From the NCBI RefSeq assembly GCF_008973715.1, contig NZ_WBOL01000017.1:1-53105 (forward strand): 53,105 nucleotides of DNA, in the 5' to 3' direction. Of this stretch, positions 27,696 through 30,690 are shown in pieces (positions within the stretch are counted from its first letter, which is position 1; every line of letters starts with the position of its first letter). The notes beneath the pieces were generated by a model, which had not been told where the DNA came from, did not search any database, and worked only from the letters and a program-made list of their open reading frames with translations. The stretch comes from Nitrincola schmidtii. Lineage in GTDB: Bacteria > Pseudomonadota > Gammaproteobacteria > Pseudomonadales > Balneatricaceae. The position numbers and the translations under genes were made by a program.

Positions 27696-27937
27696 AGTCA
27701 TCTCAATAAGCTAGGGTTTTAAAATAGTGCGGCAGAATTATTCAAATACATAACGCACCACACGAATTTGAAGGCGAGTATTATATATACAAGCGCCCAC
27801 AAATCCAAATTTTGTCAAAAAATGTTTCAACGCAGATTCACAGACCGCCTCAATGACAGACAAGATAGATGAAGTGTTTGACAGTCATATGACTTAGATC
27901 GATAATTGATCATTAATTATTCAGGTCAAGACACATC

Positions 27938-28336
27938 TTGAAGCCAACACAATCTTACATGCCTGCTTGCACCTCCAGACAATCTGGTTCAATTCAGATG
28001 TTGCTGCTCGCTTTGCTGTGGTTGGTGTTTACGGCCTTCCCGACCCCACATTCGACTCAGACTGAAACAGGATTTATTTCAGAATCGAAAAGCTGGGCCG
28101 TCGTACTTCAATCTTCACAATATCCTTCACAGCATCGAATTTCTGATGCTCAACTGCTTGAAGATGATTTAGAACCCACCTCTTCTGATACACCTAATCA
28201 CTTTTTGGCCCTTTTCGCCGCTTTGGTGGTTGCACTACTGGCAGATCACTGCCTAAAACCTCTCTCATCAGCCCCTTCTCAGGCAACTGCTCGGCTTTTT
28301 TTCCAACCACTATTAAGAGCTCCCCCTAAACACTAA
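27938..28336 (+). CDS. Candidate RAPP-type SecDF arrest/leader peptide
   Basis: The 132-residue protein is not a known family. A positively charged stretch (CTSRQSGSIQ) leads to a hydrophobic segment MLLLALLWLVFTAF (21-34), like a signal or anchor sequence. A second hydrophobic segment, FLALFAALVVALLA, lies at 89-102. The end is QPLLRAPPKH, with RAPP at 127-130 (28316-28327). RAPP is the stalling motif of ApdP/ApdA-type arrest peptides found upstream of secDF in other phyla. Starts are TTG 27938 (AGG 12 bases before), ATG 27959 or ATG 27998; none has a strong binding site. secDF begins 62 bases after its stop. Confidence 0.75.
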   Translation: MKPTQSYMPACTSRQSGSIQMLLLALLWLVFTAFPTPHSTQTETGFISESKSWAVVLQSSQYPSQHRISDAQLLEDDLEPTSSDTPNHFLALFAALVVALLADHCLKPLSSAPSQATARLFFQPLLRAPPKH

Positions 28337-28385
28337 GCCTTCCTACTGCTGCCGTTACATTGGCAGTTTCGCTTAGTTTTTTTTT
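28332..28385 (+). promoter_or_regulatory. Terminator-like attenuator between leader peptide and secDF
   Basis: ACTAAGC (28332-28338) pairs with GCTTAGT (28371-28377). An inner stem CTGCC/GGCAG (28349-28353, 28362-28366) lies in its loop. Nine T bases follow (28377-28385), then GGAG and the secDF ATG at 28399. The stop TAA of the leader peptide (28334-28336) lies inside the left arm. A ribosome stalled at RAPP should reach about 28337-28338 and keep the arm unpaired. Confidence 0.7.
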
Positions 28386-28398
28386 GATGGAGTTACCT

Positions 28399-30690
28399 AT
28401 GAAAGGTTTTTATCAGCGTGCTGCTATTTGTGGCTTGCTAGTGCTCTCTATGCTGTTTAGTGCAGTCCCTAACTTATTACCCAGCCAATTGGCCAAGCAA
28501 TTGCCCGCTTGGTATACCGAAAACACCCTGTCACTAGGGCTGGATTTACAGGGTGGTTCTCACCTGCTTCTGCAAGTCGATAAAGCAGCCATGAAACTGT
28601 CCAATGATGAAGTCATTACCGATGAAATTATGGAGAGCACTCTGGAAGTTGTGCGTCGCCGTTTGGATGAGACCGGACTGGTCGAGCCTAGCATTACACG
28701 ACAAGGACGCGAGTTCATTTTAGTACAGATGCCTGGTGTAGCTGATCCAGCAGAGGTACGTGAACTACTAGGCACCACAGCAAAAATGACCTTCCACTGG
28801 GTGGCGGATAGGTCACAGGTTAGCGGTCTCACTATGGATCGATGGGATAGTCTTGGTGAAGAGCGTTTTCGTCTTGAATCACGCGTTGCCTTGGAAGGAC
28901 AGCATATCAGTGATGCTCATTTGGCCTTTAATCAGCAAACCGGTGCTCCGGTGGTTAATTTCACCTTAGATGCTGAAGGTGCAAAGCGCTTTGCTGAGTT
29001 AACCCGTGCCAATATAGGTAGAGCCTTAGCCATCGTATTAGATGATAAGGTAATCACTGCACCAGTGATTCGTAGTGTCATCGGTGGTGGTTCTGGCGAA
29101 ATCAGTGGTAGCTTTACACCCAGAGAAGCGGGCGATTTAGCCTTATTACTTCGAGCCGGCGCTTTACCCGTTCCCTTACAGGTTATTGAAGAGAGAACTG
29201 TCGGTCCTGATCTTGGCAGTGATGCGATCCATATGGGCGTTACTACTGGATTAATCGGGGCAGTCTTAGTACTCGCCTTTATGCTTGCAGTCTACGGCAG
29301 CTGGGGATTGATCGCTTGTGTGGCCCTGATGGCGAATTTAGGGCTGATTATAGGAGTACTGAGTTTACTTCGCGCCACTCTTACTCTTCCTGGCATTGCC
29401 GGTATCATTTTAACGCTGGGTATGGCGGTCGATGCCAATATCTTGATCAACGAGCGTATAAAAGAAGAAGCTCGCAAAGGCTACTCTGCCGCCATGGCGC
29501 TGAAAGAGGGTTTTTCACGCGCGTGGAGCACCATTCTTGATTCAAACATCACCACCTTAATCGCGGTCAGTTTACTGTTTTTCTTTGGCAGTGGACCGGT
29601 TAAAGGCTTTGCGGTCACTATTGGGATAGGCTTACTGACCTCATTATTTACCTCTATCACTTTAACGCGCTTACTGATGGAATGGCGCATACGGGGTAAA
29701 GCTCGTGGAACATTGCAAATAGCCGGTATTCCTTGGTTAGAGGGCTTAAGTAAAAAAGCGCCTAACTTGATGGCTGCTCGTCGTTTCGGCTTAGCGTTAT
29801 CCCTAGCTCTATCCATTGTATCAGTGGGTTTGTTTTTTCAACCGGGCATGAAATACGGTATCGACTTTACCGGAGGAACCTTAGTCGAGGTACATACCGA
29901 TGGCATGCCATCTGAAACACTACGTCATCAGTTGGTGTTAGGTGGTCTAGCAGATGCAAGCCTTCAAGAGTCAGGAGACACTGGACAATACCTTGTTCGC
30001 TTGCCCTTACAACAAGGTCAACAAGCTGTCGCTAACGCTCAGGTTGAACAACTGAAACAAACGGTGTTGGCGGCCGATGCAGATGCAGAATTTCCTCGTA
30101 CTGAGTTAGTCGGCCCTAAAGTCAGTGGCGATTTTAGTGATATGACGCTATTGGCCATTCTGTTTGCGGGTTTAGGTATGCTGAGCTACCTCTGGTGGCG
30201 TTTTGAATCGCATTTTGCCTTGGCAGCAACGCTCACGATTGCCTTGGACCTTACCAAGACCATCGGATTTTTCGTGCTAACCGGTGTTGAATTCAATTTA
30301 ACGGCGGTGGCCGCACTGCTGGCGTTGATCGGTTATTCGGTGAATGACAAGGTGGTGGTGTTTGATTGTATTCGAGAGAACTTAAGATTAACACCCCATA
30401 AACCCATGCTGCAGTTATTAAATGAGAGCATAAGCTCTACCCTAACTCGGACACTCTTTACCTCAGTGACCACACTACTGGCTTTGTTACCTATGGCTAT
30501 TGCAGGGGGTAGCGCTGTGTCCAGCTTTGCTATACCAATGTTATTTGGTGTCGTGGTTGGCACGGCCTCATCGATCTTTATTGCGTCACCGATTCTCTAC
30601 CTTCTAGCACAACGCAGAGAACGCAGAGGATTGCCGCAACTAAGACCTAGTGCTGAAGAAATTCGGAGGGAATTGGAGTTGATGCCTTAG
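28399..30690 (+). CDS. secDF: SecD-SecF fusion translocase
   Basis: The 763-residue protein joins SecD and SecF. SecD parts: an N-terminal membrane helix, GLDLQGGSHLLLQVD, the periplasmic region, AGALPVPLQVIEERTVGPDL, and GMAVDANILINERIKEE with the proton-path Asp. SecF starts near residue 450 with GIDFTGGTLVEV and has GYSVNDKVVVFDCIREN. It uses the ion gradient to pull proteins out of SecYEG. Gammaproteobacteria normally have separate secD and secF next to yajC, so this is probably a second copy. GGAG six bases before 28399 fixes the start. Confidence 0.93.
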   Translation: MKGFYQRAAICGLLVLSMLFSAVPNLLPSQLAKQLPAWYTENTLSLGLDLQGGSHLLLQVDKAAMKLSNDEVITDEIMESTLEVVRRRLDETGLVEPSITRQGREFILVQMPGVADPAEVRELLGTTAKMTFHWVADRSQVSGLTMDRWDSLGEERFRLESRVALEGQHISDAHLAFNQQTGAPVVNFTLDAEGAKRFAELTRANIGRALAIVLDDKVITAPVIRSVIGGGSGEISGSFTPREAGDLALLLRAGALPVPLQVIEERTVGPDLGSDAIHMGVTTGLIGAVLVLAFMLAVYGSWGLIACVALMANLGLIIGVLSLLRATLTLPGIAGIILTLGMAVDANILINERIKEEARKGYSAAMALKEGFSRAWSTILDSNITTLIAVSLLFFFGSGPVKGFAVTIGIGLLTSLFTSITLTRLLMEWRIRGKARGTLQIAGIPWLEGLSKKAPNLMAARRFGLALSLALSIVSVGLFFQPGMKYGIDFTGGTLVEVHTDGMPSETLRHQLVLGGLADASLQESGDTGQYLVRLPLQQGQQAVANAQVEQLKQTVLAADADAEFPRTELVGPKVSGDFSDMTLLAILFAGLGMLSYLWWRFESHFALAATLTIALDLTKTIGFFVLTGVEFNLTAVAALLALIGYSVNDKVVVFDCIRENLRLTPHKPMLQLLNESISSTLTRTLFTSVTTLLALLPMAIAGGSAVSSFAIPMLFGVVVGTASSIFIASPILYLLAQRRERRGLPQLRPSAEEIRRELELMP

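What the first reader, a model, noticed from the sequence alone, without database searches (positions are those of the whole stretch)
27938..28399. Candidate RAPP arrest peptide with attenuator controlling a SecDF fusion
Seen: an unrecognised 132-codon ORF with two hydrophobic segments ends in LLRAPPKH, 62 bases before secDF. Its stop codon is inside the left arm (28332-28338) of a hairpin with ACTAAGC/GCTTAGT, nine T and then the secDF Shine-Dalgarno. Known: arrest peptides upstream of secDF/yidC (VemP in Vibrio, ApdA/ApdP/ApcA with RAPP or RAGP-like motifs in other phyla) stall the ribosome until SecDF-dependent export pulls on them. Inference: a ribosome stalled at the third or fourth RAPP residue would cover the left arm, prevent the hairpin and switch secDF on when export is poor. 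I know of no RAPP peptide paired with a fused secDF in this group.
Basis: partly seen in the sequence, partly recalled or inferred. Interest (0 to 1): 0.93.

Follow-up and report, generated by a model that had tools for sequence, protein, structure and literature searches.

The report
Stalling leader peptide controlling second SecDF
A short exported protein made just before a spare protein-export pump gene is very probably built to jam the ribosome when export is poor and thereby switch the pump gene on; this kind of switch is known, but its relatives share an unusually fixed layout that hints at how it senses export.

Summary
In detail: a 132-codon ORF (27938-28336) ends LLRAPPKH, 62 nt before a fused secDF (28399-30690), its stop codon inside a -16.7 kcal/mol hairpin followed by T9. 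The secDF is a second copy. A [RQH][AG]PP upstream ORF is kept in 57 of 60 loci with SecDF at least 54% identical (51 of 54 distinct ones), against 0 of 115 and 0 of 1150 control places. It is a new member of the published RAPP/ApdP-RQH arrest peptides; one upstream of secDF2 in a related gammaproteobacterium was shown by experiment.

Across 47 non-redundant loci the arrest-site codons co-vary with the secDF2 Shine-Dalgarno region (z about -10 to -13, nothing further upstream), so SD masking is the conserved switch. In this genome the predicted SD effect is weak and the T9 hairpin is the strongest feature, so attenuation stays open here. New: the peptides share a near-constant 92-residue signal-to-arrest spacing with an acidic and a hydrophobic patch at set distances, which suggests a gauge of translocation or proton-motive force.

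The parts
27878..27906 (+). sigma-70-type promoter TTGACA-17-GATAAT for the uORF-secDF2 transcript
   Evidence: 11 of 12 consensus matches (2 sites found in the 720-base stretch against 1.2 expected); TTGACT-17-GATAAT in L010 and L011. Consensus match only.
27938..28336 (+). uORF: RAPP arrest peptide, 132 aa, TTG start, TAA stop 28334-28336
   Evidence: 40 and 43% identity to L010 and L011; pN/pS 0.46 and 0.54 to them, with pS near saturation
27998..28048 (+). N-terminal signal/anchor hydrophobic segment, residues 21-37 (-108 to -92 from the P-site)
28160..28201 (+). acidic patch EDDLEPTSSDTPNH, residues 75-88 (-54 to -41)
   Evidence: position-conserved acidic region in the family
28199..28243 (+). 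second hydrophobic segment HFLALFAALVVALLA, residues 88-102 (-41 to -27)
   Evidence: mean Kyte-Doolittle 2.59; same place in L010, L011, L093, L095, absent in L012
28316..28327 (+). RAPP arrest motif codons; inferred P-site codon 28322-28324, A-site codon 28325-28327
   Evidence: motif kept in 57 of 60 loci; stall position taken from published ApdP/ApdA work
28318..28323 (+). anti-SD arm AGCUCC, within the R-A-P codons
   Evidence: predicted fold; register partly kept in L010 and shifted in L011
28332..28338 (+). left arm ACTAAGC of the stop-codon hairpin
   Evidence: 7 of 7 pairs kept in 3 of 3 same-genus loci compared, 3 pairs changed on both sides
28348..28367 (+). apical 7-bp stem-loop of the hairpin
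28371..28377 (+). right arm GCTTAGT of the stop-codon hairpin
28377..28385 (+). T9 tract; possible intrinsic-terminator tail (first T belongs to the right arm)
   Evidence: longest T run in the window; weak or absent in relatives
28389..28394 (+). secDF2 Shine-Dalgarno region GGAGTT
28399..30690 (+). secDF2: fused SecD-SecF translocation motor, second copy

Best explanation
The uORF is a Sec-monitoring arrest peptide of the ApdP/RQH kind that makes expression of a spare fused SecDF depend on export. When the nascent peptide is exported well, pulling force frees the ribosome, which runs off the stop codon; the mRNA then folds so that the arrest-site/stop-codon region pairs with downstream sequence and secDF2 is off or low. 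When export is poor, the ribosome stays at RAP-P (P-site 28322-28324) with its leading edge near 28337, the left arms cannot pair, and secDF2 is made. Shown here by comparison: conservation of peptide, motif and spacing, and covariation of the RNA arms. Inferred from published relatives: the stall itself, force release, induction. In the family the downstream switch is masking of the secDF2 SD; in this genome the same stalled ribosome would also break a hairpin with a T9 tail, so transcription termination may add to, or largely replace, SD masking here.
For: Strict [RQH][AG]PP within 14 residues of the stop of a frame of at least 60 codons ending within 200 nt upstream of secDF2: 57 of 60 loci at 54% SecDF identity or more, 51 of 54 after removing duplicates; controls 0 of 115 (reverse strand) and 0 of 1150 (inside secDF). 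Motif codons vary while residues do not. pN/pS 0.21-0.89, median about 0.46, in 18 chosen pairs, not all independent. All 47 non-redundant uORFs have an N-terminal hydrophobic segment. Own versus swapped pairing of the arrest-site segment with the SD region: -11.75 versus -8.43 kcal/mol, 0 of 20000 permutations as good; same test with the left segment starting 12 to 120 nt upstream: no clear excess (z -1.4 to +1.6); starting at the P-site: z -12.8. Mean cost of opening the SD falls from 6.7 to 3.5 kcal/mol as the ribosome's leading edge moves from P+3 to P+15 (47 loci). Same-genus stop-codon helix: 7 of 7 pairs in 3 of 3, three with changes on both sides. Experimental precedent: A. naphthalenivorans RGPP peptide, 5.6-fold loss of secDF2'-lacZ with P127A, countered partly or strongly by stem mutations.
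Against: No stall was measured. For the window itself own SD pairing is only -8.2 kcal/mol, and 12 of 46 foreign SD regions pair as well; predicted SD opening cost is 5.6 free versus 5.3 with the stalled footprint and stays flat along the edge scan, so SD masking is not well predicted in this genome. 18 of 47 loci gain less than 2 kcal/mol: all 7 alphaproteobacterial loci and 11 of 40 gamma loci, the window, L010 and L093 among them. Three of 60 loci lack the strict motif: L023 (RAAP), L099 (RDPP), L110 (none found). RAPP alone does not always stall: most RAPP-like E. coli and B. subtilis sequences tested did not stall efficiently.
Confidence: 0.88

Rival explanations
1. One reading: in this genome the stalled ribosome acts mainly by preventing an intrinsic terminator (hairpin 28332-28377 plus T9), so secDF2 is controlled by transcription attenuation.
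For: -16.7 kcal/mol hairpin directly followed by the longest T run of the window; hairpin starts 10 nt after the P-site nucleotide, at nearly the same place (+8 to +11) in L010, L011 and L093; SD masking is weak in this genome.
Against: T-tract not kept: 5, 6 and 5 T of 8 in the three relatives; no such hairpin-plus-T at that place in the other 43 of 47 loci. The stem base next to the T-tract is A/T-rich (A-U, C-G, U-A, A-U, A-U) with a 9/3 internal loop. The consensus terminator scan did not call it. The published close relative works through SD masking.
Confidence: 0.42
2. CruR-like output: the stalled ribosome blocks Rho loading on the C-rich uORF, and release allows Rho-dependent termination before secDF2.
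For: CruR is an exported uORF product with a C-terminal RAPP and Rho-dependent termination. The uORF's 3' part is C>G (GC skew -0.24 to -0.55 in the 80-base windows from 28100 to 28379).
Against: Strong own-SD covariation says a structured switch is under selection in the family, whereas Rho sites are described as unstructured. No CXXC in the peptide and no DUF2946 match.
Confidence: 0.08
3. The uORF is just a small secreted or membrane protein, co-transcribed with secDF2, that does not stall.
For: Hydrophobic N-terminal segment and amino-acid-level selection.
Against: Spacer identity is close to shuffled (median 8.6% against 7.4%) while RAPP, its place 1-6 residues from the stop in 46 of 47 loci and the RNA pairing are kept; hard to explain by a mature protein function.
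Confidence: 0.04

Closest known systems
uDF_RQH_Enterobacterales (Alteromonas naphthalenivorans RGPP uORF - secDF2), Fujiwara et al. 2024, PMC10987492 (abstract, sections 6, 7, 11, 12, 25 and passages seen)
   Same: Gammaproteobacterial exported uORF, RxPP near the C-terminus, upstream of secDF2, downstream stem masking the SD; Alteromonadaceae loci fetched here (L028, L029, L032, fused secDF2) fall inside the same SecDF2 clade as the window
   Different: Window has RAPP, a second TM-like hydrophobic segment, a separate stop-codon hairpin and a T9 tract. The A. naphthalenivorans locus itself was not fetched. That paper counts 11 secDF groups in a supplement not readable here, so a Pseudomonadales secDF group may already be listed there
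ApdP (alphaproteobacteria, upstream of secDF2), PMC7897499 and PMC10951233 (passages seen)
   Same: RAPP, N-terminal signal-anchor, upstream of a presumed secondary SecDF; Rhizobiales ApdP-type loci are sister to the gamma SecDF2 clade and share the spacing (92 residues in 4 of 5, 103 in L042)
   Different: Patch at -54 to -41 is mixed-charge in Rhizobiales; predicted SD unmasking is weak in all 7 alpha loci
VemP - secD2/secF2 of Vibrio (recalled; introduction passage of PMC7897499, abstract of PMC11470409)
   Same: Sec-monitoring arrest peptide controlling a second SecDF in a marine bacterium
   Different: No RAPP (recalled); longer spacing (median 133); separate secD2 and secF2 genes
CruR (DUF2946), PMC9426467 (passages seen)
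   Same: Exported uORF with C-terminal RAPP controlling the next gene
   Different: CXXC copper sensor, Rho-dependent termination, TonB-dependent transporter target

Membership tests
RAPP-type (ApdP/RQH) Sec-related arrest peptide | small uORF of unknown function upstream of sec/yidC, same strand | tested here: met
   132 aa, 62 nt before secDF, no Pfam/NCBIfam match
RAPP-type (ApdP/RQH) Sec-related arrest peptide | N-terminal secretion signal or TM segment | tested here: met
   hydrophobic segment residues 21-37, Kyte-Doolittle 2.33; hydropathy only, no signal-peptide predictor used
RAPP-type (ApdP/RQH) Sec-related arrest peptide | C-terminal RAPP-like sequence conserved among homologues | tested here: met
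   57 of 60 loci, 51 of 54 distinct
RAPP-type (ApdP/RQH) Sec-related arrest peptide | spacer over 30 residues between signal and arrest site | tested here: met
   94 residues in the window; median 92 in 47 loci
RAPP-type (ApdP/RQH) Sec-related arrest peptide | ribosome stalls with RAP in the P-site and Pro in the A-site | not testable with these tools
   needs toeprinting; published for ApdA/ApdP
RAPP-type (ApdP/RQH) Sec-related arrest peptide | arrest induces the downstream gene | not testable with these tools
   published for A. naphthalenivorans
SD-masking output switch (as in A. naphthalenivorans) | arrest-site region pairs with the downstream SD and co-varies with it | tested here: inconclusive
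   met for the family (z -10 to -13); weak for the window itself
intrinsic terminator/attenuator | stable hairpin directly followed by a T-tract, overlapped by the stalled ribosome | tested here: met
   anatomy met in the window, though the simple scan did not call it; not kept in relatives; termination itself not tested
CruR / DUF2946 | CXXC plus RAPP and DUF2946 profile | tested here: not met
   no CXXC in the sequence, no Pfam match
VemP | VemP-type arrest sequence upstream of secD2/secF2 | not tested
   VemP sequence not compared; window has RAPP and a shorter spacer than the published VemP median of 133

The most novel reading that the evidence does not exclude
The secDF2 arrest peptides are positional gauges. 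With spacer sequence drifted almost to chance, they keep the signal about 92 residues, an acidic patch 41-54 residues and a hydrophobic patch 27-40 residues before the arrest point. At arrest the acidic patch should lie in or entering SecYEG and the hydrophobic patch at the tunnel exit. In the gamma members the acidic patch would be a handle on which the membrane potential (part of the energy source of SecDF itself) pulls, so the peptide reports proton-motive force and late translocation, not merely SecYEG or SecA activity; in most of the window's family the hydrophobic patch has become TM-like and would add membrane-insertion force. secDF2 would thus be switched on when the motor's own energy source fails.
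Probability: 0.25. Interest if true: 0.82.

Novelty: new member of a known kind. Interest (0 to 1): 0.55.

Why it matters
It extends ribosome-arrest control of a second SecDF across a broad but patchy set of gammaproteobacteria and ties them to alphaproteobacterial ApdP through one SecDF2 clade, where the 2024 survey grouped such peptides by order and favoured repeated origins. Covariation over many genomes indicates that the arrest-site and stop-codon region serves at once as coding sequence of the stall and as anti-SD arm. The fixed spacing, with acidic and hydrophobic patches at set distances from the arrest point, contrasts with the published view that spacer length can vary in secretion-type arrest peptides, and it makes a long-standing question testable: what force, and at which step, releases a Sec-monitoring peptide.

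Tried and rejected
Tried without result: Rfam over 27850-28500 gave two matches, both far below gathering scores. Pfam and NCBIfam gave nothing for the uORF. A pattern search of the own genome for the hairpin arms with gaps of 1-25 found one other place, not examined; the window's own arms are 32 nt apart and lie outside that pattern. A terminator search across 47 loci found hairpin plus T-tract at the arrest site only in four members of the window's family; L104, L027, L122 and L119 have one farther on. This is why attenuation was not taken as the family mechanism. A fixed-register SD helix from the window does not fit L011 (register shifted). A held-out position matrix peaked within one residue of the expected register in three held-out groups (z at register 0: 3.7-5.2), but absolute scores were negative or near zero, the best offset was often -1 or +1, and for the window's group offset -8 scored almost as well; it supports shared layout, not residue-level homology. 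Promoter matches across 46 loci were only slightly above shuffled (7.6 versus 6.8 of 12; 3 of 46 reach 10), so promoter conservation is claimed for the window, L010 and L011 only.

Rows dropped or uncertain: three names (L046, L058, L073) were listed for removal before counting the 66 loci; only L073 (Acetobacteraceae, RAPP in a frame overlapping the secDF start) was in fact in the set. The 66 were reduced to 47 by shared 8-mers. L026, L077, L080 and L082 had no usable start or upstream DNA; L077 and L080 nevertheless stand in the tree labelled 'no uORF', a label that carries no information for them. L120 (just under the 54% cut) has the motif and is not in the 57 of 60. The 60 include the window and six duplicate pairs from two collections. 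L123-L127 matched as SecD plus SecF read through one stop, taken as not fused.

Tree limits: quick method, LG+G4, SH-aLRT only, two long branches flagged.
Full report
What is there. The secDF is fused and is a second copy: the own genome has separate secD-like and secF-like frames on contig C31. A sigma-70-like promoter (11 of 12) at 27878-27906 sits just before the TTG start, and two same-genus relatives have a near-identical one. Their uORFs are 40 and 43% identical to the window's and their ATG codons line up with the TTG.

Is it an arrest peptide? In a uniform scan, 57 of 60 loci with SecDF at least 54% identical have an upstream frame ending in [RQH][AG]PP, 51 of 54 once duplicates are removed; the misses are L023 (RAAP), L099 (a 161-codon frame ending RDPPTT) and L110 (nothing found). 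Among 55 less similar loci nine hits occur: five Rhizobiales, two Azospirillaceae, L120 (just under the cut) and L073 (judged spurious). Controls: 0 of 115 and 0 of 1150. Residues are kept while their codons vary, and 18 chosen pairs all show pN below pS. Published work reports that Asp at the second motif position partly supports arrest in ApdP, which makes L099 a plausible weak version.

How the downstream gene is switched. The segment from the arrest P-site codon onward pairs with the SD region of its own secDF2 far better than with those of other loci: -13.13 versus -8.57 kcal/mol, z -12.8; -11.75 versus -8.43, 0 of 20000 permutations, when the segment starts at the Arg codon. Segments starting 12-120 nt upstream show no clear excess. 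If the ribosome's leading edge is moved along the mRNA, the mean cost of opening the SD falls from 6.7 (edge P+3) to 3.5 kcal/mol (P+15), just where a RAP-stalled ribosome would sit. Free mRNA costs 6.9 on average, 4.4 with the left arm shuffled and 3.3 with the stalled footprint removed. SD masking relieved by the stalled ribosome is therefore the family's switch, as shown by experiment for A. naphthalenivorans. It is not uniform: 18 of 47 loci gain under 2 kcal/mol, namely all 7 alpha loci and 11 of 40 gamma loci.

The window is one of the weak ones. Its own pairing score is -8.2 (12 of 46 foreign SD regions as good with the same left arm), and the predicted opening cost barely changes (5.6 to 5.3). 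Instead it and two same-genus relatives carry a stop-codon helix with 7 of 7 pairs kept in 3 of 3 sequences and three pairs changed on both sides (n is small), and only the window adds a strong T-tract (8 of 8; relatives 5, 6 and 5 of 8). A Rho-dependent variant, as in CruR, is a weaker rival; the uORF's 3' part is C-rich.

A shared layout. Aligned without gaps on the arrest P-site, the 47 uORFs put the end of the signal's hydrophobic core at a median of 92 residues (36 of 47 between 88 and 95), an acidic patch at -54 to -41 (D+E 0.24 versus 0.10 shuffled, z 14) and a hydrophobic patch at -40 to -27 (z 10.6), although spacer identity is little above shuffled (median 8.6% against 7.4%). The most acidic 12-residue window is centred between -56 and -40 in 36 of 47, against 13.5 +/- 3.0 shuffled. 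The charge is clearly net negative in the gamma groups but mixed in Rhizobiales and Azospirillaceae. In 10 of 47 the near segment is strongly hydrophobic, among them five of the six family members in the set (not L012). These regions were chosen after looking at the profile, so the z values are descriptive; the scan over all 14-residue windows also exceeded its 1000 shuffles. The 2024 survey described a wide range of spacer lengths for most secDF-linked peptides and treated length as free for secretion-type signals. A model TM helix starts to be pulled when its N-end is about 45 residues from the PTC, close to the -41 seen here; and an acidic stretch is pulled by the membrane potential strongly enough to free SecM, although the review that reports this notes that basic and uncharged stretches also raised release. 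From these I infer, not show, a force gauge that could read membrane potential.

Origins. In a quick SecDF tree the gamma SecDF2 rows form one clade (42 rows, 40 with the uORF counting RAAP of L023), sister to the Rhizobiales ApdP-type rows (97 support for the joint set), while Acetobacteraceae and other SecDFs without the peptide fall outside; Azospirillaceae carry a RAPP uORF but group with Acetobacteraceae. One inherited cassette in gamma and Rhizobiales with a few losses fits; Azospirillaceae need a separate gain or an older origin with more losses. L012, from the window's own genus, groups with Zhongshania antarctica, which suggests horizontal exchange.

What is known. RAPP arrest, its structure and its use upstream of secDF in alpha- and gammaproteobacteria are published (passages and sections seen). 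In the held library, a search for secDF2, arrest peptide and Marinobacter listed six papers, none of which holds 'Marinobacter', and a search with RAPP, secDF2 and Pseudomonadales listed no further paper on secDF uORFs of these genera by title; the survey's supplements could not be read. I therefore file the window as a new member of a known kind, with an unusual terminator-like hairpin, and rate the positional layout as the part most worth following.

Noticed in passing
window 28399-30690, near 28570-28640: SecDF2 here lacks about 75 residues of the P1 region found in same-genus relatives L010 and L011. Listed short forms occur in L013, L014, L015, L033, L093, L094 and L113 (7 of 60 rows; 22 rows, the window's own among them, were not measured by the pattern), on several branches, so the shortening seems recurrent.
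   Followed up: partly
L012 (same genus as the window): Carries a different SecDF2 (57-58% identical) with its own RAPP uORF that groups with Zhongshania antarctica: likely horizontal replacement of the cassette within one genus.
   Followed up: partly
L099, L023, L110 upstream of secDF2: Arrest motif reads RDPP in L099 and RAAP in L023; no uORF with the motif was found in L110. Natural tests of what weakens or ends the switch.
   Followed up: partly
L048, L049 (Azospirillum, Niveispirillum): RAPP uORF with the same spacing (94 and 92) upstream of a SecDF that groups with Acetobacteraceae SecDFs lacking it: independent gain or older common origin.
   Followed up: no
window 28386-28413: The secDF2 start codon lies in the loop of a small predicted hairpin (ACCU AUGAA AGGU), and the SD can also pair with secDF2 codons 3-6, which may keep basal translation low whatever the ribosome does.
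   Followed up: no
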